Shown: piece by piece, positions 109 through 56,519 of the stretch
How the letters are laid out: each line of letters opens with the position of its first letter
Numbering within the stretch: position 1 is the first letter of the stretch
Origin: an uncultured Bacilli bacterium
GTDB taxonomy: Bacteria; Bacillota_I; Bacilli_A; RFN20; CAG-449
Assembly (NCBI GenBank): GCA_944332075.1
Contig: CALVJL010000002.1
Location: forward strand, 1 to 64,000
Direction: 5' to 3'
Length of the DNA: 64,000 bases
Notes under the pieces: generated by a model
Database searches by the model: none
What the model was told of the DNA's origin: nothing
What the model saw: the letters and a program-made list of their open reading frames with translations, nothing else
Program-made: the position numbers and the translations under genes

Positions 109-361
109 GTATAAACTATCCTTAAAATTAGTTGATCAAACTTAAAACATCTATTTTGTTTCAATATGATGAGAACATTATCATGTCTACAAAAAAACAA
201 TAAAAATATTTAATTGTATTTCTTTTAATTTTTGATAATATAGAGCACATTTTACAATAAATAAATTAATTATTAGTATATTCTTTATGTTTAACCCTAT
301 ATAAATTTATATATCGCTTAAATTGTTTTGATTTTCAGAGGTATTTTATTTTTATGCGGTA
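109..361. other. AT-rich intergenic stretch, no gene seen
   Basis: There is no convincing reading frame, RNA or repeat here. It lies between the terminator at 86-108 and the cas9 promoter and may hold promoter-distal control sites of the CRISPR locus. I see only AT-rich sequence and weak imperfect inverted repeats. Confidence 0.6.
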
Positions 362-370: not shown

Positions 371-380
371 TTCTTTATAA

Positions 381-404
381 GAAAAAAACATCCATACGGA
401 TGTT
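381..404 (-). terminator. tracrRNA intrinsic terminator
   Basis: On the minus strand, AACATCC (404-398), loop GTAT, GGATGTT (393-387) is followed by a run of T down to 382. On the plus strand the hairpin is not followed by T, so cas9 transcription should pass through it. Confidence 0.85.
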
Positions 405-470
405 AGAATGGTCACACAATGCAACCTATGTTACGAATGAATTTTTATTTATACTCGTAATGTAATTCTA
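381..470 (-). ncRNA. tracrRNA of the type II-A system
   Basis: Read on the minus strand, the RNA starts with an anti-repeat. AGAATTACATTAC (469-457) pairs perfectly with the middle of the CRISPR repeat, then comes a GAGT bulge opposite repeat GA, then ATAAAT (452-447) pairs with repeat GTTTAT with one G-U pair. This lower stem, bulge and upper stem layout is that of Streptococcus pyogenes tracrRNA. A weak nexus follows, then a 7-bp hairpin GGTTGCA/TGTGACC (427-411 region), then the terminator hairpin AACATCC/GGATGTT with a T run. Length is about 90 nt. The RNA should pair with crRNA, recruit RNase III and load Cas9. It is divergent from cas9 and antisense to its leader. Confidence 0.88.
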
Positions 471-475
471 TGTGT

Positions 476-504
476 ATTATACCAAGAAAAAGAGAGGGGT
501 TCAA
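476..504 (-). promoter_or_regulatory. tracrRNA promoter inside the cas9 ribosome-binding region
   Basis: On the minus strand, TTGAAC (504-499) and a perfect TATAAT (481-476) are separated by exactly 17 bp. The expected start point is near 470, the first base of the anti-repeat. The -35 box lies between the cas9 Shine-Dalgarno sequence (about 492-499) and its ATG at 506, so the two elements share DNA. Confidence 0.8.
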
Positions 505-505
505 T

Positions 506-3500
506 ATGGAAGAAGAAAAATATTTATTGGGATTGGATATCGGAACAAATTCTGTTGGTTGGTGTTTAACAGACAAAAACTATAATGTTATTAAAAAGCA
601 AGGTAAGTCATTATGGGGTGTTCGGCTTTTTGAAGAGGCTAATACCGCCGCGGATAGAAGAATGCATCGCGCGAATCGAAGACGTTTATTTAGACGAAAG
701 GAAAGAATAAATTTGTTAAAAGATTTGTTTGCTGAAGAGATAGCTAAAGTTGATAATACTTTTTTACAAAGATTATCGGAAGCGCAGCTACATCATAGTG
801 ATAAAAAAATTAAAATAGATTATTTATTATTTAATGATATAAATTATTCTGATAAAGACTTTTATCATCAATATCCGACAATCTATCATTTAATAAATGA
901 TTTAATTAAGAATGATAAAAAATATGATATAAGGTTAGTTTATTTAGCTTGTGCATTTTTAATTAAATATCGCGGACATTTTTTATATGAAGGAGAATTT
1001 AAAACTTCTAGTGTCGCTGATTTCTCTAATTATCTTAATTTAATTAATGATAATGTTAATACTTATTATGGTGATACATCAGAAAATATTTTTGCTGTTG
1101 ATGATCAAATAATTTTAGATGTAATTCAAGATGTTAAAAACTTTCACGGCATCACTGATCTTAAAGCTAAACTTTCAAGATTAATTATTAAAGATACTAA
1201 ATTTTCAAAAGTATTGGTTTCGGTTATGTCAGGAGGATCAGTTAAAGTATCTAATTTAATTTCTTCTCTTGAATCTACAGATGTAGATTCTAGCGAAGAA
1301 ACTTTATCAATTGATGTAAAAGAAGAAAAATTTGAAGAAAATATCGCTACATTAAAAGCTAAGTATCCATCATTAGAGAATATCTTCATTTGTATTGAAC
1401 AATGTAAAAATATTTATGATTTCATAATTTTAAACAAACTTTTAAAAGACAAAAAATATCTTTGTGAAGCAATGATTGCTCGTTATGACGAACATAAATC
1501 TGATTTGAAAGATTTAAAAAGCTATATAAAGAAAAATTATAGTGATAAGTACTATGAAATTTTCCGTAAGTATCCATTCACGAAAAAAGGAAATAAAATT
1601 TCAGAAACTTGTAATTATGTTCATTATATTGGTAGCAACAACAATCGTAATAAAGTTACTAGATTTAGTCATTGCAAGAAGGAAGACTTTTATAAATATT
1701 TAAAAGGTATTTTCGGGTTAGATAAGATAAAAAAAGCAGATGATATTAATGATGAATTTTTAAAATCAATTTACTTGAAGATGAGTGAAGGAACATACCT
1801 ATTAAGGCAAAACGGACCAGATAATGGTGTTTTTCCTTATCAAATAAATTTAATGATGCTAAAAGCTATTCTCGATAATCAAAGCAAATACTATCAGTTC
1901 TTATCAACTTCTGATGAAGATGGCAGCGTTAAGAATAAGATTATTTCTTTGATGAAATTTAAGATTCCTTATTATGTTGGCCCTTTGTATAACGGAAATG
2001 ATGAAAATAGGAAAAAATTCGCTTGGGTCGTGCGTAAAGAGGAGAAAATATATCCTTGGAATTTTGATAGAGTTGTAGATAAATATGCAAGCGCAGAGGC
2101 TTTTATTAAAAAGATGCAAAATAAATGTACTTATTTATCAAATGAAGAATGTTTACCAAAAGAATCGTTGCTTTATTCTGAATATAATGTTTTATCAGAA
2201 TTAAATAAACTTTGCGTTAATGGTGTGCCATTAGAATTAGCAGCCAAAAATTATCTTATTGAAGAATTATATGAGAAAAGAAGCAATGTAACTAAAAAAA
2301 TGGTTATTGATTGCTTAAAATCATTTTATAATTCTAAGACTATCAATATATCTACTTCTAACAGTAAAGAAATGGAAGAAATACACGCTTCGTTAAAATC
2401 GCGTCATGATTTCATAAATATTTTTGGAAAAGATTATTTTGATAAACATATAGATGAAATTGAAGATATCATTTATAACATCACAATGTTTGAAGACAAA
2501 GATATTTTAAAATCTAGATTACAACAAAAATATTCTTTTGAGACTTCTATTTTGAATAAAATTCTAAAATTAAATTATAAGGGATGGGGACGCATTTCTA
2601 GAAAACTTCTTGCCGGATTACCAGCCGCGGACAAAAACGGAGAAATAATAGCAAATAATATAATTTCGATTATGCGGAATAGTAATCAAAATTTAATGGA
2701 AATTCTTTATGATTCAAAATATAATTATCAACAAATAATTGAAGATTATAATAATAAATTTATTCAAAAAGATACTTATGATATTGAGTCGATGAAGAGA
2801 TATATTGATGATTTATACGCTTCGCCGATGATGAAACGGTCGTTAGTTCAAACTTGTAAAATTATTTTAGAATTAGAAAAAATTATTCATCATCCAATAA
2901 ATGAATTTTATATTGAATGTACTCGTGAGCATGAGGAAAAGAAAGTTAAAGGGAATCGTAAAGATTCGCGTTATGAATCGGTTAAAAAATTGTTAGATGA
3001 TGCTTTTAAAGACAAAAAAATTCAATCAAATAATGATGATTTAGATTCGGTTAGAAAATTGCTTAAAGAAAAATGCGAAAATGATTCATCAATGTTAAGA
3101 AGCGATTATATTTATCTATATTTTACTCAGTTAGGTCGCTGCCTTTACACTGGACAAAAAATTAATTTTGATGATTTGATAAATGGCAATCTCGGTAAAT
3201 ATGACATTGACCATATTTATCCGCAATCTTTGGTTAAAGATGATAGTTTAGATAATAGGGTTTTAGTCGTTTCTGAAGCTAATAGATTGAAGAGTGATGA
3301 ATATCCGATAAAGTATACTGAATTAAAGCCTATAGATGGTTATAATGCTTTTGCGTACGCGAAATTCCTTTCAGATCATAAATTTATTAGTCAAGAAAAA
3401 TATCATCGCTTAACAAAGAGAACAACATTGACGGATGATGATTTGAAATCGTTTATTAACCGGCAATTAGTTTCTACTTCTCAATCGGTAAAAGCTGTAG

Positions 3501-4789
3501 CAGACTTGCTTAGACATTATAAAAAAGATGCATTGGTCGTATATTCTAAAGCTAATGCTGTTTCCGATTTTCGTCAAACCTTTGATATTATAAAATGCCG
3601 TGAAGCAAACGATTACCATCACGCTCATGATGCATATCTTAATATAGTTGTTGGACGAGTTTTACATGAGTATTTTAGATTTGATTCTCCGACAAATCAG
3701 ATTTTGAGATTACATGAAAAAGGATTCACATCTAATCCTAAAAAGGTGTTTATCGATAATGAAAATAAAAACAAATTGCCTCTTAAATCAAGAAATGGTG
3801 ATGTTATTTTGGATTATCAAAAAACGATAGATAAAGTAAAAAAACAAATATTTAATCATTTTGATATTTTCGTCACCACAAGAGCATATATTGGAACAAC
3901 CTTATTTGCCAAAGAATCAATTAAACCAGCAAGAGATGTCCAAGAAGGGGCCTTGCCTTTAAAGAAAAATGGATTATTGAATGATATTAAAAAGTATGGT
4001 GGATATTCTGATCTTAGTTTCGGAAGTTATATGCTAGTAGAATCTGATAGTAAAAAAGGTAAAAAGTATTCAATCGAGACCATACCGACAATCTACACAC
4101 ATTATTCTGATGAAGAAAAACTTGCATATTTAGTTAAAGAGAAAAAATTAGAAAATCCAAAAATTGTTTTGCCGGTTCTCAAAGTTAATACAGTCATTAA
4201 ATCAGGACATAGTAAATTCTGTATTACTGGTAAAACTAATGATTCATATCTTTGTAAAAATTTAAGTGAAGCTAATTTTAATAAGGAAGAATTAAAATTA
4301 ATAAAATTATCGACTAAGGCATTAGAAAAATTAAGAAAAATAGGTGTTGTCAGCGGTTATAAAATTTCAGAGGATACGGATTTAAATGAGTATGGTAATG
4401 AATTTTTAATTTCTGCTCCGAGAACAAACAAAAATTCACCTATTATTGTTACTTTAGAAGAAATGAAAAAGTTATTTAAGGTATTATCTAATAAATTAGA
4501 CAGCAATATTTATGAAGCTTTTTCGCCAATAAAAACTATATGTGAAACATTGCACAAAAAAGAATATATTGAAATGACAAATGATTTTAATTTGATTCAG
4601 TACATTGTCTTAAATCAATCAATTTTAAATTTAATTAAATGCGATAGAACATTATCTGATTTATCTGTGATTGGATTAAGTCAACATTCTGGATTTTTAT
4701 CTATATCCAAAAACATTAATATTTCAATGCAAATTATTTCTGAATCAATTACAGGATATTATACAAAAGTTTTATGGAGTAATGAGTGA
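506..4789 (+). CDS. cas9: Cas9 endonuclease, type II-A, 1427 aa
   Basis: RNA-guided DNA endonuclease that uses crRNA:tracrRNA. RuvC-I is at the N-terminus (YLLGLDIGTNSVGW, catalytic D11), followed by the Arg-rich bridge helix (about 45-75) and the REC lobe with an IKYRGHF motif. RuvC-II has FYIEC (E804), the HNH domain has DIDHIYPQ (H903), and RuvC-III has YHHAHDAYLN (H1039, D1042). A C-terminal PAM-interacting region follows. All nuclease residues are present, so it should be active. It is slightly longer than the S. pyogenes protein. The start at 506 is chosen because AGAGGGG precedes it at proper spacing and the protein then begins MEEEKYLLGLDIG; an upstream in-frame ATG at 470 coincides with the tracrRNA start. 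Its TGA overlaps the cas1 ATG. Confidence 0.97.
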   Translation: MEEEKYLLGLDIGTNSVGWCLTDKNYNVIKKQGKSLWGVRLFEEANTAADRRMHRANRRRLFRRKERINLLKDLFAEEIAKVDNTFLQRLSEAQLHHSDKKIKIDYLLFNDINYSDKDFYHQYPTIYHLINDLIKNDKKYDIRLVYLACAFLIKYRGHFLYEGEFKTSSVADFSNYLNLINDNVNTYYGDTSENIFAVDDQIILDVIQDVKNFHGITDLKAKLSRLIIKDTKFSKVLVSVMSGGSVKVSNLISSLESTDVDSSEETLSIDVKEEKFEENIATLKAKYPSLENIFICIEQCKNIYDFIILNKLLKDKKYLCEAMIARYDEHKSDLKDLKSYIKKNYSDKYYEIFRKYPFTKKGNKISETCNYVHYIGSNNNRNKVTRFSHCKKEDFYKYLKGIFGLDKIKKADDINDEFLKSIYLKMSEGTYLLRQNGPDNGVFPYQINLMMLKAILDNQSKYYQFLSTSDEDGSVKNKIISLMKFKIPYYVGPLYNGNDENRKKFAWVVRKEEKIYPWNFDRVVDKYASAEAFIKKMQNKCTYLSNEECLPKESLLYSEYNVLSELNKLCVNGVPLELAAKNYLIEELYEKRSNVTKKMVIDCLKSFYNSKTINISTSNSKEMEEIHASLKSRHDFINIFGKDYFDKHIDEIEDIIYNITMFEDKDILKSRLQQKYSFETSILNKILKLNYKGWGRISRKLLAGLPAADKNGEIIANNIISIMRNSNQNLMEILYDSKYNYQQIIEDYNNKFIQKDTYDIESMKRYIDDLYASPMMKRSLVQTCKIILELEKIIHHPINEFYIECTREHEEKKVKGNRKDSRYESVKKLLDDAFKDKKIQSNNDDLDSVRKLLKEKCENDSSMLRSDYIYLYFTQLGRCLYTGQKINFDDLINGNLGKYDIDHIYPQSLVKDDSLDNRVLVVSEANRLKSDEYPIKYTELKPIDGYNAFAYAKFLSDHKFISQEKYHRLTKRTTLTDDDLKSFINRQLVSTSQSVKAVADLLRHYKKDALVVYSKANAVSDFRQTFDIIKCREANDYHHAHDAYLNIVVGRVLHEYFRFDSPTNQILRLHEKGFTSNPKKVFIDNENKNKLPLKSRNGDVILDYQKTIDKVKKQIFNHFDIFVTTRAYIGTTLFAKESIKPARDVQEGALPLKKNGLLNDIKKYGGYSDLSFGSYMLVESDSKKGKKYSIETIPTIYTHYSDEEKLAYLVKEKKLENPKIVLPVLKVNTVIKSGHSKFCITGKTNDSYLCKNLSEANFNKEELKLIKLSTKALEKLRKIGVVSGYKISEDTDLNEYGNEFLISAPRTNKNSPIIVTLEEMKKLFKVLSNKLDSNIYEAFSPIKTICETLHKKEYIEMTNDFNLIQYIVLNQSILNLIKCDRTLSDLSVIGLSQHSGFLSISKNINISMQIISESITGYYTKVLWSNE

Positions 4790-5652
4790 TGGGATTTAGA
4801 ATAGTTTCAATAAAAAATAGATGCAAACTAGAATATTCTTTAAATTATTTAGTTGTAAGAAGTGAAAAAGAAACTAAAATCTGCATTGATGAAATTGCTG
4901 TTTTAATCGTGGCTTCAACAGAAGTTTCATTAACGGCTTCTTTATTATCTGCTTTAATGAACAAAAATATTTCCGTTATATTCTGCGATGCTAAGTATAA
5001 TCCTCAAAGCCAACTTCTTCCTTTTTATGGAACTATTGATACATATAAAAAAATATTTTTTCAAATCCGGTGGGATAATACTTTGAAAGGAGAGATTTGG
5101 AAAAGTATTATACAGAAAAAGATAGAAAATCAAGCTAAAAATTTATTTGAAATAAATGAAGAGGCGCATAATAAGTTAATTACATATAAAGATGAAGTAG
5201 AAATTCATGATAATACTAATAGAGAAGGGCATTCTGCAAAAGTGTAATTTAATGCCCTTTTTTCTTCTTCATTTTCTCGTAATAAAGATAATCTAATTAA
5301 CAAATTTTTGGATTATGGATACAGTATATTGCTAAGTGCAATCAATAGAGAAATTAAATCTTTTGGATATCTAACTGAAATTGGCATTCATCATATTGGA
5401 GAGACGAATCCGTTTAATTTATCATGTGATTTTATAGAACCTTTAAGACCATTAGTCGATTATTATGTGATTAACAAATTAGTAGATGATGGAAATTTTA
5501 AAAATGTATTTATTAATATGCTTAATTTAAAAGTTCGATATCGTGATAAAGAATTATTTTTAGAAAATGCTATTCATTCATATGTTGGTGGATTACTGAC
5601 TAATTTGAGAACAGGATCTTTAGTTGTGGATTTTATTGAATATGAGTTATAG
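4789..5652 (+). pseudogene. cas1: cas1, type II-A integrase, interrupted by an in-frame TAA
   Basis: Cas1 is the integrase that inserts new spacers together with Cas2 and Csn2. The reading frame matches II-A Cas1 from start (MGFRIVSIKNR) to end across 287 codons, but codon 153 (5245-5247) is TAA where the family has Tyr, in NREGHSAKV-stop-FNALF. The frame does not shift: after the stop it continues with FNALFSSSFSRNKDNLINKF, then LDYGYSILLS, IGIHH and DFIEPLRPLVD, so the later metal-ligand His and Glu are preserved. One base change (TAT or TAC to TAA) explains it. The truncated product would lack most of the active site. Either adaptation is lost, the stop is read through, or the base is a sequence error. 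The ATG overlaps the cas9 stop. Confidence 0.92.
5223..5263 (+). terminator. terminator-like hairpin around the premature cas1 stop
   Basis: AAGGGCATT (5225-5233) pairs perfectly with AATGCCCTT (5251-5259), extendable by a G-U and an A-T pair, and is followed by TTTTCTTC. The 17-nt loop contains the TAA at 5245-5247. The long loop and broken T tract make termination efficiency uncertain. It could reduce cas2/csn2 transcription if the region is not translated. Confidence 0.5.
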
Positions 5653-5962
5653 ATATATGAGACTACTATTAAGTTTTGATTTACCTGTGGAAAAGAAGGA
5701 ACAGCGGACAGCATATCGCCATTTTGTAAAAGATATAAAATCACTAGGCTTTTATCAATTTCAAAAATCGGTTTATATAAAGCTTTGCATGAATCAACAA
5801 ATGGCAGATGCATATATTAAAAAAGTTAAAAGTTTTGCCCCTAATGAAGGTTCTGTAGCGGTTTTAACAATTACAGAAAAACAGTTCAATGATATTAAAA
5901 TTTTACTTGGTGATAATATTACTGATGTCATAAATAGCGATGAAAGAATGATAGAATTATGA
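5642..5962 (+). CDS. cas2: Cas2, type II-A, 106 aa
   Basis: Small ferredoxin-fold partner of Cas1 in spacer integration. The N-terminus MSYRYMRLLLSFDLP and the later SVYIKL and TITEKQFNDI blocks match II-A Cas2, including the beta-strand Asp of the family. Length is normal. I take the ATG at 5642 rather than the upstream GTG at 5624 because family members begin MSYRYMR. The gene starts 11 bp before the cas1 stop, so translation probably depends on ribosomes reading the second half of cas1. The premature cas1 stop may therefore be polar on it. Confidence 0.93.
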   Translation: MSYRYMRLLLSFDLPVEKKEQRTAYRHFVKDIKSLGFYQFQKSVYIKLCMNQQMADAYIKKVKSFAPNEGSVAVLTITEKQFNDIKILLGDNITDVINSDERMIEL

Positions 5963-6609
5963 TTTTACAATTTAAAAGAATAGAATATAAATTTTTAATT
6001 GGTAATGGAGAAATATATAATTTAAAAATTGAAAACCAACATTTTTTAGCAGATATTCTTTCTTGGCTACAAGAAATAGATGAAGAAAAAATAATGCTTT
6101 TTGATACTATATTTTTAGATTTACAAAAATATTTACTTTTCTTATCTGATGTTATTAATTTAGATTTAAACATTAAAAAACAATTAACGACCTTGTATAC
6201 GAATATTGATAAAAACATAATTAAGGATGAACAAAGAATAAAACTTTCAGTAATTACAGAGTATATTAGTGACTTAATGAAGGATATTACTATTGATAAC
6301 AATGTTGAACTAGATTATGATGCTTCTATAGATTTTAAGACATTATTTTCTGCAATTAATCTTCGTTATAAAACTGAAGATCAAGACTATTTCCATAAGC
6401 TAATATATTATTTAAAAGCAACTATTGATATTAGTAAATATAAAGTTTTTGTTTGCTATTCCTTATTAGATTTATTGACAGATTTTGAAATTGATTTACT
6501 TAAGGAGTTTTTAGAATATAATCATTTGTCTTTAATAAGTATTGGTAATTCTAGTGTTAGAAATGGAGTTAAGACCATAATTGTTGATAGTGATTTATGT
6601 TTAATTTGA
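5959..6609 (+). CDS. csn2: Csn2, type II-A adaptation protein, 216 aa
   Basis: Csn2 forms tetrameric rings that bind DNA ends during spacer capture in II-A systems. The protein is of the usual length and has the family profile, with a start MILQFKRIEYKFL, a helical middle, and a C-terminal half with KYKVFVCYSLLDLLTD and a short ending. The ATG overlaps the cas2 stop by 4 bp. It is the last cas gene before the leader and array and defines the system as subtype II-A. Csn2 sequences vary widely, so the assignment rests on both profile and position. Confidence 0.88.
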   Translation: MILQFKRIEYKFLIGNGEIYNLKIENQHFLADILSWLQEIDEEKIMLFDTIFLDLQKYLLFLSDVINLDLNIKKQLTTLYTNIDKNIIKDEQRIKLSVITEYISDLMKDITIDNNVELDYDASIDFKTLFSAINLRYKTEDQDYFHKLIYYLKATIDISKYKVFVCYSLLDLLTDFEIDLLKEFLEYNHLSLISIGNSSVRNGVKTIIVDSDLCLI

Positions 6610-6685
6610 TAATTCATTAATGTTGATTTAGAATGTATTTGTAATGTATTCAAGAATTATTTATGTCATATTCTCTTAATTTGAG
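6610..6685 (+). promoter_or_regulatory. CRISPR leader with ATTTGAG anchoring site
   Basis: This 76-nt AT-rich stretch lies between csn2 and the first repeat. It ends in ATTTGAG (6679-6685) directly against repeat 1, the leader-anchoring sequence known from II-A systems to direct Cas1-Cas2 integration. It must also hold the pre-crRNA promoter, but no strong -35/-10 pair stands out. Confidence 0.75.
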
Positions 6686-7251
6686 GTTTATGAGTAATGT
6701 AATTCTTAATAACTCATGAACTATATTATATATATATATATGTGTCAAGTGCCGTTTATGAGTAATGTAATTCTTAATAACTCATGAACATATTTCACAA
6801 GAACCAGCGCCGAAGATCTGTTTATGAGTAATGTAATTCTTAATAACTCATGAACCCCTATGCCGTATGACTATCCAATACCTATGTTTATGAGTAATGT
6901 AATTCTTAATAACTCATGAACAAAAATCTACATGGTAAGATAACCCATAGTGTTTATGAGTAATGTAATTCTTAATAACTCATGAACTCTTCCAAAAATG
7001 GCACAATTTGACACTATGTTTATGAGTAATGTAATTCTTAATAACTCATGAACGTAATCAATGCTGCATCGGGTGTTAGAATTGTTTATGAGTAATGTAA
7101 TTCTTAATAACTCATGAACTGTTAGAAATTGGCAATCTAAAGTTGATGAGTTTATGAGTAATGTAATTCTTAATAACTCATGAACACGAAGCTGCAGCTG
7201 TTACCACTGATGATTGTTTATGGGTAATGTAATTTTAATTTATATATTTTA
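6686..7251 (+). CRISPR. CRISPR array, 9 repeats of 36 bp and 8 spacers
   Basis: Repeats start at 6686, 6754, 6820, 6886, 6952, 7018, 7084, 7150 and 7216. The first eight are identical (GTTTATGAGTAATG... ...AATAACTCATGAAC). The ninth is degenerate: it has G for A at position 8 and loses homology after AATGTAATT, which marks the distal end. Spacers are 30 nt except the leader-proximal one (6722-6753), which is 32 nt and contains a TA-dinucleotide run. The repeat ends are nearly inverted (GTTTATGAGT versus ACTCATGAAC). The leader is on the csn2 side, so transcription is forward. I recognise none of the spacers and saw no match to them elsewhere in the window. Confidence 0.98.
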
Positions 7252-8608: not shown

Positions 8609-8868
8609 TATTTCCATTTTTGAAGTGAATAGTAGGCTTTATCGATTTCGCTATCGATAGAAACGTCGCTAGTATCTTCAATATAAAATGAAACGTTTTT
8701 ATATAAAGAGAGAAAAGTGTCAGTGTCAAGCAAATATGAATACGTATTTGACTGAACATATATTTTCTCTTTTTTCTTGGCAAAATAGGTCTTTTTGCTA
8801 TTTTGGACAATAAATAATAGTTCACCTTGATTAATTAACAATAAAGCTTTTTCTGCATTAATTTCCAT
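8605..8868 (-). CDS. small hypothetical protein, 87 aa
   Basis: Not recognised. It is a soluble protein rich in Lys, Tyr and Ser (MEINAEKALLLINQGELLFI...) with no membrane segment or metal motif. The ATG at 8868 follows GGTGAT; an upstream in-frame TTG at 8880 is less likely. It overlaps the end of the NYN-domain gene by 11 bp and is the last gene of that operon. Its stop overlaps the stop of the convergent membrane gene. Confidence 0.6.
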   Translation of the reverse strand: MEINAEKALLLINQGELLFIVQNSKKTYFAKKKEKIYVQSNTYSYLLDTDTFLSLYKNVSFYIEDTSDVSIDSEIDKAYYSLQKWKY

Positions 8869-9586
8869 TCTTATCACCAATCTTTATATAGGCTGTTTCT
8901 TTTCTTTTTTCGTCTTCGTATTCTAGATTATAGCCAAGTTTAATTAACTTATCTTGAGTTAATTTGAGTTTAGCAAGAGCAGGCACTTTTTTTACTTCAG
9001 ATACGAGATTAGAATAATAAATTCTTGCCTTATGGTTATTGTAATTATTGATAATGATTGTATTAATGGTATCCGATAAAAGTTGATCTTTTGTAGCTTG
9101 CTTCTTTTTCTTAGGTGAAGGTTTAACGACTTCTTTTTGATTTTTTAATTCTTCGATGAAATAGAAGTGATTAAATAATTTTTGATAGTCTTCGTTTGTC
9201 GTAGCTTTTGAACCGACCCCGATGATGGTTTTACCCATCAAACGGAGTTTAATAGCTAATTCAGCGTAGTCAGCATCGTTGCTGACGATGCAGAAAGCTT
9301 CAATATTATTTTGGGTATAGGCTAAATCAAGAGCTTCGATATAAAGGCGAAAATCTAATAAATTTTTTCTAACATCAGCATAAGTGCAAGAAAGATCTAA
9401 TCGATATTTTTTCAAATCATCGCTTAATTCTGCTTTTTTGATTTTTCCTAAATCGTTAACAATCATCTTACGCGGATAAAGCAAATCATAATTTAAATTG
9501 TTAAGCGACTTAAAAAGCTCATCGAGAATCTCGTGAGGTTTAATATTCTCTGAATCAAAGAGAATGGCACATTGATTATGGTTCAT
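8858..9586 (-). CDS. NYN-domain ribonuclease-like protein with C-terminal LOTUS/OST-HTH-like domain, 242 aa
   Basis: The N-terminal half matches the NYN (PIN-like, LabA-type) fold. ILFDSENI (about residues 8-15) supplies the first acidic residue, and SNDADYAELA (about 102-112) supplies the conserved S-D-D cluster. A Lys/Pro-rich linker (about 150-167) leads to a helical-beta C-terminal domain resembling an OST-HTH/LOTUS RNA-binding module. Such proteins act on RNA, but their substrates are mostly unknown. It lies 12 bp downstream of the HAD phosphatase gene, so the two are in one operon. Confidence 0.75.
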   Translation of the reverse strand: MNHNQCAILFDSENIKPHEILDELFKSLNNLNYDLLYPRKMIVNDLGKIKKAELSDDLKKYRLDLSCTYADVRKNLLDFRLYIEALDLAYTQNNIEAFCIVSNDADYAELAIKLRLMGKTIIGVGSKATTNEDYQKLFNHFYFIEELKNQKEVVKPSPKKKKQATKDQLLSDTINTIIINNYNNHKARIYYSNLVSEVKKVPALAKLKLTQDKLIKLGYNLEYEDEKRKETAYIKIGDKNGN

Positions 9587-54726: not shown

Positions 54727-56519
54727 TGAAACTTGATTTAATTACTTTATTGTTATCTCCTGAAGAAACTACCTCGGCATCTGTTGAATCCAAACCAGCA
54801 CCTAAAAAGCGCGGCAGAAAGCCAGGATCTAAAAATAAGACAACAACTAAAAAGTCAACATCTTCTAAAAAGACTACAAGTGCCTCTAAGAAGAAACCTG
54901 CTACTAGAAAGCCTCGTGTTAAAAAAGAGGAAATCGTTGAAGAAACTATCACTGAAATTACTCAAAGTAATGGTGAAGAAATAAAAGAAACAGAAATTGT
55001 TACTGAAACAGTAGTCCCTGAAGTAGTTGAAACTGCTGCTCACCATGAAGATGAATATAAGCCTGGTGATGTTGAAAAATTAAAACCAACTGGTAAAGTT
55101 GGAGGATTCGATTATGACCATGCTGAAGTTTTATTAGATGTTCGCCATTTAAAACAATTCTTCCGCTTCGGTAGAGGAAAATATAAATATAACAAGGCTG
55201 TTAACAACGTCTCGTTTAAAATTTATAAGGGTGAAGTCTTTGGCTTAGTTGGTGAATCTGGTTGCGGCAAGACTACAACTGGACGTTCAATTATTAAACT
55301 TTATAAAATCACTTCGGGCGACGTATGGTTCAAAGGAGTCAGAATTGCGGCCGGTGTGAGATGGAATCAAAAGGAAATTAAGTTTACTAAGATTCGTCTT
55401 AATGAAGCATTAAAAAAATATGCCTCTGAAAAGAAAGCTGAACTTGAAGCTTTAAATCTTGAATTTAATGATGCTTTCCATGAAAATCTTTCGCCGAGCA
55501 AAGTACGTAAAGAGATTAAAGAGCATGCTGACAACTATGAAGAGAAGAGCGAATTTTTACGTCGTCACGATGAAATTATCGCTAAATTTAATGAGCTAGC
55601 TGATAAAAAAATTGATGAAGCTGTAAATATTATTTCTGTTCAAAGAGAAAAAATTAAGAAAGCTCGTCACGATAATCGTTACTGCAATAAAGATATGCAG
55701 AAAAAGGCTGTCGCTGAAGTTAAAGAGCAATATGCTGATATTATCGAGCGGGTAAAAGCTGATAAGAATTCATTAAGCGAAGAGGAAACTAAACGCTTTA
55801 ATGAATATAAAGCTGCTTTGAAAAAAGCGAAAAAGGAAACAATTACTAGTAAGATTCAAATGATCTTCCAAGATCCTATCGCTTCATTAAATCCGAGAAT
55901 GACCGTCAGAAATATTATTGCTGAAGGCTTAATTATTCAAGGTGTACATGATAAAGATTATGTTACTAAGGAAGTTAACCGCGTTCTTGAATTAGTCGGC
56001 TTAGTTCCTGAACACGCAAACCGTTATCCACACGAATTCTCAGGTGGACAACGCCAAAGAATCGGTATTGCTCGGGCAATTATTATGAATCCTGAACTGA
56101 TTATCGCTGACGAACCGGTTTCGGCTCTCGACGTTTCAATTCAAGCTCAAGTCATTAACTTACTTAACGATTTAAGAAACAATTTAGGATTAACTATCCT
56201 CTTTATCGCTCATAACCTTTCGGTTGTTAAATATTTCTGTGACCGAATTGCCGTTATGTATTATGGTAACCTCGTTGAGTTAACAACTTCTGATGAGTTA
56301 TTTGCTCATCCGTTGCATCCATATACCAAATCACTTCTCTCAGCTGTCCCACATCCAGATCCAAATCTCGAAAAAGGCAGAAAGAGAATTGCTTACGATT
56401 CTTCTTTCCATGATTACTCTAAACAAAAACCAACTCTTAGAGAATTAGCAAAAGGACATTTCGTCCTCTGCAATGATGAAGAAGAAATTCGTTACAGAAA
56501 AGAATTAGAAGGAAAGTAA
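54726..56519 (+). CDS. oppF: OppF-like ATPase with AT-hook-like N-terminal tail and coiled-coil insert, 597 aa
   Basis: Residues about 26-70 are a Lys/Arg/Ser/Thr-rich tail with PKKRGRKPGSKNK, an AT-hook-like core (RGRKPG). An acidic stretch follows (70-115). The ATPase then begins, with Walker A GESGCGKT (176-183), Q-loop FQDPIASLNP (381-390), signature FSGGQRQR (438-445) and Walker B LIIADEPVSALD (458-469). An insert of about 170 residues (about 207-375), helical and charged, lies between Walker A and the Q-loop. The start overlaps the oppD stop (TAATG). The tail may bind nucleic acid or membrane lipids; neither is shown. Confidence 0.93.
   Translation: MKLDLITLLLSPEETTSASVESKPAPKKRGRKPGSKNKTTTKKSTSSKKTTSASKKKPATRKPRVKKEEIVEETITEITQSNGEEIKETEIVTETVVPEVVETAAHHEDEYKPGDVEKLKPTGKVGGFDYDHAEVLLDVRHLKQFFRFGRGKYKYNKAVNNVSFKIYKGEVFGLVGESGCGKTTTGRSIIKLYKITSGDVWFKGVRIAAGVRWNQKEIKFTKIRLNEALKKYASEKKAELEALNLEFNDAFHENLSPSKVRKEIKEHADNYEEKSEFLRRHDEIIAKFNELADKKIDEAVNIISVQREKIKKARHDNRYCNKDMQKKAVAEVKEQYADIIERVKADKNSLSEEETKRFNEYKAALKKAKKETITSKIQMIFQDPIASLNPRMTVRNIIAEGLIIQGVHDKDYVTKEVNRVLELVGLVPEHANRYPHEFSGGQRQRIGIARAIIMNPELIIADEPVSALDVSIQAQVINLLNDLRNNLGLTILFIAHNLSVVKYFCDRIAVMYYGNLVELTTSDELFAHPLHPYTKSLLSAVPHPDPNLEKGRKRIAYDSSFHDYSKQKPTLRELAKGHFVLCNDEEEIRYRKELEGK

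What the first reader, a model, noticed from the sequence alone, without database searches (positions are those of the whole stretch)
4789..5652. cas1 inactivated by one in-frame stop while the rest of the II-A locus is intact
Codon 153 is TAA where II-A Cas1 has Tyr (NREGHSAKV-stop-FNALF). The frame resumes without a shift, and all later conserved blocks, including IGIHH and DFIEPLRPLVD, are preserved over 134 codons. Decay has not accumulated, so the change is recent, tolerated by read-through, or an error. If real, the locus has interference parts (Cas9, tracrRNA, array) but no complete adaptation integrase: a CRISPR memory frozen in time.
Basis: partly seen in the sequence, partly recalled or inferred. 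Interest (0 to 1): 0.72.

Follow-up and report, generated by a model that had tools for sequence, protein, structure and literature searches.

The report
Recently broken cas1 beside intact Cas9
In one low-GC bacterial genome of the class that includes the mycoplasmas, a single-base change has put a stop codon in the middle of cas1, the gene needed to record new viral infections, while the Cas9 parts that use old records look intact; this kind of gene loss is already known, so the case is a tidy but ordinary example.

Summary
TAA at 5245-5247 is the only stop inside a 288-codon type II-A cas1 (4789-5652), and the frame continues unshifted. Among 38 non-redundant relatives the residue is Tyr in 37 (TAT 30, TAC 7) and Phe in one; none has a stop. 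Both Tyr codons are one substitution from TAA. The stop lies seven codons after the first active-site Glu (E146) and removes the other catalytic residues (H202, D214, E217, R220). The genome has no second cas1, and none of 43 tRNAs reads UAA. UAA ends 28 of 33 long reading frames in the window, so read-through is implausible. The downstream half shows no decay or faster evolution; under a neutral model the stop is younger than about 0.035 substitutions per site. Cas9, tracrRNA, Cas2, Csn2, leader anchor and array look intact. Best reading: a young nonsense allele that leaves interference possible and adaptation blocked; less likely, a strain variant or consensus error in a draft assembly. Loss of adaptation genes around a retained Cas9 is documented elsewhere.

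The parts
506..4789 (+). cas9 (type II-A, about 1427 aa from ATG 506; the ORF can also start at ATG 470), intact
   Evidence: TIGR01865 at 8.5e-236 over the full profile; no internal stop; RuvC and HNH motifs LGLDIGTNS, YIECTRE, YDIDHIYPQ, NRLKSDE and YHHAHDAYLN all present
376..470 (-). predicted tracrRNA: anti-repeat at about 447-470, intrinsic terminator at 404-387
   Evidence: repeat/anti-repeat duplex -18.2 kcal/mol on the - strand; terminator at 404-387 and promoter-like TTGAAC-17-TATAAT with TG at 504-476, both - strand. Ends are estimates.
4789..5652 (+). cas1 reading frame, 288 codons, interrupted at codon 153
5245..5247 (+). in-frame TAA in place of a conserved Tyr codon (S. pyogenes Cas1 numbering about 156)
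5221..5263 (+). terminator-like hairpin (13-pair stem with G-U pairs, 17-nt loop, T-rich tail) with the TAA in its loop
   Evidence: -16.0 kcal/mol, z -3.3; 3 of 1000 synonymous shuffles of cas1 give such a hairpin; not seen in relatives
5642..5962 (+). cas2, intact; its start overlaps the end of cas1
   Evidence: TIGR01573 at 2.2e-18, PF09827, coordinates
5959..6609 (+). csn2, intact
   Evidence: TIGR01866 at 3.4e-30 over 1-222/222
6679..6685 (+). ATTTGAG directly before the first repeat, as in the known II-A leader-anchoring sequence (from own knowledge)
6686..7251 (+). CRISPR array: eight identical 36-nt repeats, eight spacers (one of 32 nt, seven of 30 nt), degenerate last repeat from 7216

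Best explanation
A genuine and recent nonsense mutation (Tyr codon TAT or TAC to TAA) has inactivated the only cas1 of this genome. Translation stops after 152 residues. The product keeps the N-terminal domain and the first active-site Glu but lacks the other four active-site residues, so it cannot integrate spacers. Cas9, tracrRNA and the eight-spacer array remain, so existing spacers can probably still guide cleavage while new ones cannot be added. Because cas1 and cas2 overlap and a terminator-like hairpin surrounds the stop, cas2 and csn2 output is probably reduced too. Shown by sequence: the stop, its uniqueness, the missing second cas1, the missing suppressor tRNA, and the intact neighbouring genes. 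Inferred: loss of integration, retained interference, polarity.
For: Single in-frame TAA at a residue that is Tyr in 37 and Phe in 1 of 38 relatives. The homologous S. pyogenes active site is E149, H205, D217, E220 and R223, and the H205A/E220A mutant loses acquisition (PMC12216489); four of these five lie after the stop. No other cas1 in a 98.75% complete genome. 43 tRNAs, none reading UAA. 28 of 33 long frames in the window end in TAA. First in-frame start after the stop is TTG at 5308, residue 174, with no ribosome-binding site that I can see. All near-invariant downstream residues kept, 23 of 23. The window's share of total tree length is 0.012 for the downstream half and 0.021 for the upstream half, so no acceleration. 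Neutral simulation: 95% limit about 0.035 substitutions per site. Isolated stops are rare elsewhere in this genome: of 49 ABC ATPase matches one has stops, and it has two.
Against: The genome is an unnamed 20-contig draft, so a base error or a minority strain allele in the consensus is possible, and no reads or second strain were available. The two same-genus genomes have no cas1 to compare. Interference competence is inferred: no convincing protospacer was found.
Confidence: 0.72

Rival explanations
1. Consensus error or strain mixture: the population carries mostly a Tyr codon and the TAA is an assembly error or a minority allele.
For: Draft multi-contig genome; one base change explains everything; no decay downstream. 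Hairpins can lower local read quality.
Against: It is a substitution, not the indel typical of long-read error. Isolated internal stops are not seen in 48 of 49 ABC ATPase matches of the same genome, nor in cas9. The changed base is not in a long homopolymer.
Confidence: 0.2
2. Read-through, or independent translation of a second fragment, gives working Cas1 at low level (suppression or split Cas1).
For: The downstream half is fully conserved. A class relative, G318, has its cas1 broken by a one-base frameshift at almost the same place.
Against: No UAA-reading tRNA; UAA is the standard terminator here; the TAAT context terminates efficiently (own knowledge). The first in-frame restart is TTG at residue 174, omitting 20 residues, several of them conserved. 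The G318 lesion is a one-base loss in an A run, an ordinary indel.
Confidence: 0.05
3. The stop and hairpin together are a selected switch that shuts off cas1-cas2-csn2 while keeping cas9 expressed.
For: The hairpin with T tail around the stop is rare under synonymous shuffling, 3 of 1000, and is the only such structure I found inside a cas gene. Codons 156-161, which form its 3' side, differ from close relatives.
Against: The hairpin thresholds were chosen after seeing it. Two other hairpins in cas9 fold more strongly, at -19.7 and -19.3 kcal/mol. No relative shares it, so there is no sign of conservation.
Confidence: 0.03

Closest known systems
Stepwise inactivation of II-A CRISPR-Cas in Mycoplasma gallisepticum (PMC11893278)
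   Same: Single-base stop codons in a type II-A locus of the same broad bacterial class; additional mutations inactivating cas1 or cas2 were reported in some isolates
   Different: There the isolates with inactivated cas1 or cas2 also had truncated cas9; here cas9 is intact and only cas1 is broken
Campylobacter coli clade 3 type II-C locus with cas9 but no cas1 or cas2 (PMC4607530)
   Same: Cas9 kept without an adaptation integrase
   Different: Complete absence of the genes and a different subtype (II-C); here cas1 is present and one base from open
Canonical type II-A Cas1 of S. pyogenes and E. faecalis (PDB 4zkj, 5xvn; PMC12216489)
   Same: Same family over the full length, same active-site residues when the frame is read through
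   Different: Stop at codon 153 removes four of five active-site residues

Membership tests
Type II-A CRISPR-Cas locus | cas9, cas1, cas2 and csn2 in order, with a CRISPR array | tested here: met
   TIGR01865, TIGR03639, TIGR01573, TIGR01866 matches in order; array
Type II-A CRISPR-Cas locus | tracrRNA with an anti-repeat | tested here: met
   anti-repeat duplex -18.2 kcal/mol on the - strand at 446-490; expression not testable
Functional type II Cas1 integrase | Open reading frame through all active-site residues | tested here: not met
   TAA at codon 153 before H202, D214, E217, R220
Functional type II Cas1 integrase | Integrates new spacers | not testable with these tools
   needs an acquisition assay
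Pseudogene (recent nonsense allele) | Disabling lesion unique to this lineage, with conserved remainder | tested here: met
Pseudogene (recent nonsense allele) | Lesion confirmed in reads or in a second strain | not testable with these tools
   no reads or same-species genome available; genus-mates lack cas1
Stop-codon reassignment or suppression | tRNA able to read UAA, or UAA avoided as a terminator | tested here: not met
   43 tRNAs without a UUA anticodon; 28 of 33 long frames end in TAA

The most novel reading that the evidence does not exclude
The stop codon and the surrounding terminator-like hairpin act together as a selected off-switch that separates adaptation from interference within one II-A operon, fixing the spacer repertoire while keeping Cas9 active.
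Probability: 0.03. Interest if true: 0.55.

Novelty: new member of a known kind. Interest (0 to 1): 0.25.

Why it matters
If real, it is a clean natural example of a II-A locus caught at the first step of losing adaptation while everything else looks intact, useful for asking whether Cas9 with a fixed spacer set is stable or is followed by loss of the whole locus. It does not change current understanding, since loss of adaptation genes with retained Cas9 and point-mutation decay of II-A loci have been reported.

Tried and rejected
Second cas1 in the genome: none. Suppressor tRNA: none. Same-species copy in other collections: none found; the best genome-contig hits are 64% identical and viral contigs gave none. 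Protospacers: one 22-nt match to Streptococcus prophages; seed hits in viral contigs did not extend to full spacers, with 7 or more mismatches in L090 and L091, and L092 has the same record length as the Javan prophages and was not extended further; treated as chance. Self-targeting: none inside the window and no own-genome match beyond the array. Codon-usage scan for other interrupted genes in the window: one hit at 56517, read as an ordinary boundary between two genes, but the scan did not flag the cas1 stop either, so it is insensitive. My first relatives script read minus-strand loci on the wrong strand; one search replaces it. Template-switch origin of the hairpin's 3' arm considered; the copy is not exact, so not pursued.

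Full report
What was checked. The window is the first 64 kb of contig C2 of a 1.47-Mb genome in 20 contigs, 98.75% complete. The cas1 frame begins with the ATG at 4789, overlapping the cas9 stop, and ends with TAG at 5650-5652. Codon 153, at 5245-5247, is TAA, with no frame shift. Both halves match the type II Cas1 profile. The finding is accurate as written.

More than chance? Twenty-one relatives from whole genomes and further loci from a second collection gave 38 non-redundant Cas1 besides the window's. Tyr is at this place in 37 (TAT 30, TAC 7) and Phe in one; no other has an internal stop. In the order, 53 of 279 genomes have a cas1 over the cut-off and only this one has a stop. In a phylum sample, apart from genomes with only TGA inside the frame (read here as mycoplasma-type genomes that use TGA for Trp), the other broken copies were G318, G527, G351 and fragments such as G053, with frameshifts or several lesions. 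Broken cas1 is thus uncommon but not unique.

Consequence for the protein. The homologous S. pyogenes active site is E149, H205, D217, E220, R223 (PMC12216489). The window's E146, H202, D214, E217 and R220 correspond at a constant offset of three. The stop follows E146 by seven codons and removes the other four. In that paper a double substitution at H205 and E220 abolishes acquisition. The first in-frame restart codon is TTG at residue 174, without a ribosome-binding site that I can see. A functional Cas1 from this frame is therefore unlikely.

Read-through. None of the 43 tRNAs found in the genome has a UUA anticodon. UAA ends 28 of the 33 long frames in the window, so a general UAA suppressor would be harmful. 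The following base is T, a strong termination context (own knowledge). There is no second cas1 to work in trans.

Age. All 23 near-invariant residues of the downstream half are kept. On trees of the two halves, the window's share of total length is 0.021 before the stop and 0.012 after it. A simulation of neutral substitution puts the 95% limit for keeping these residues and acquiring no further stop at about 0.035 substitutions per site; stops alone give 0.122. The model used assumed composition and transition bias, so the figures are rough. Codons 156-161 just after the stop differ from close relatives, including Gly159 to Ser, but the site varies in more distant ones.

Rest of the locus. 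Cas9 is full length with RuvC and HNH motifs present. A tracrRNA is predicted on the - strand upstream of cas9, with an anti-repeat, a promoter-like site and a terminator. Cas2 and Csn2 are complete. The array has eight identical repeats and eight spacers, and ATTTGAG lies directly before the first repeat. Interference therefore looks possible, but no convincing target was found.

The hairpin. The TAA lies in the loop of a hairpin at 5221-5263 followed by a T-rich tail: -16 kcal/mol, z -3.3. The standard scan missed it because its loop is 17 nt. With criteria set after seeing it, only 3 of 1000 synonymous shuffles of cas1 contain one, and no other cas gene here does; the other window hits were not individually checked against gene boundaries. 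Relatives lack it, though some share parts of the 5' arm. Two cas9 hairpins are stronger but did not pass the T-tail criterion. It may lower expression of cas2 and csn2, but this is an inference from a feature picked after the fact.

Error or real? No reads are available. Against an error-ridden assembly, only one of 49 ABC ATPase matches carries stops, and it has two; cas9 is clean. I give about 0.72 to a genuine recent nonsense allele, 0.20 to an error or strain mixture, and the rest to read-through or a selected switch.

Relation to what is known. M. gallisepticum II-A loci decay by single-base stops in cas9, with further mutations inactivating cas1 or cas2 in some isolates (PMC11893278). 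C. coli clade 3 keeps cas9 without cas1 or cas2 (PMC4607530). In the window's own family, G005 shows the reverse case: cas9 broken by stops and cas1 open. The finding is a new instance of a known kind.

Noticed in passing
L104 (G001:C73:1-8000), ORF 415-3096 -, array 170-336: Same-genus genome G001 has a Cas13d-like effector (NCBIfam VI_Cas13d 119.9 bits, below its 150 cut-off; PADLOC Cas13d 1.4e-42) beside a three-repeat array, with no cas1 found and only a weak sub-cut-off cas9 hit. The last 23 nt of its repeat match the window's II-A repeat at 21 of 23 positions, which suggests that Cas13d arrays may borrow a II-A adaptation module.
   Followed up: partly
L104 3257-6748 +: Next to the Cas13d-like gene, a 1163-aa protein matches the Tmn defence model at 6.5e-42, so this may be a small defence island.
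   Followed up: no
L093 2131-3032 - (G318): cas1 of class relative G318 is split by a one-base frameshift at the residues matching window 151-153, almost the same place as the TAA, with both halves otherwise conserved.
   Followed up: partly
L096 (G005:C23:13500-20500): In same-family genome G005 cas9 is broken by TAG and TAA while cas1 is open, the mirror image of the window.
   Followed up: no
6722-6753: The leader-proximal spacer is 32 nt instead of 30 and begins with a (TA)n run, possibly from slippage.
   Followed up: no
1-470: The contig starts about 500 bases upstream of cas9, just beyond the predicted tracrRNA, so the upstream neighbourhood of the locus is unknown.
   Followed up: no
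8858-9586: A 242-aa NYN-domain protein is encoded on the - strand downstream of the array (PF01936 at 8e-12).
   Followed up: no
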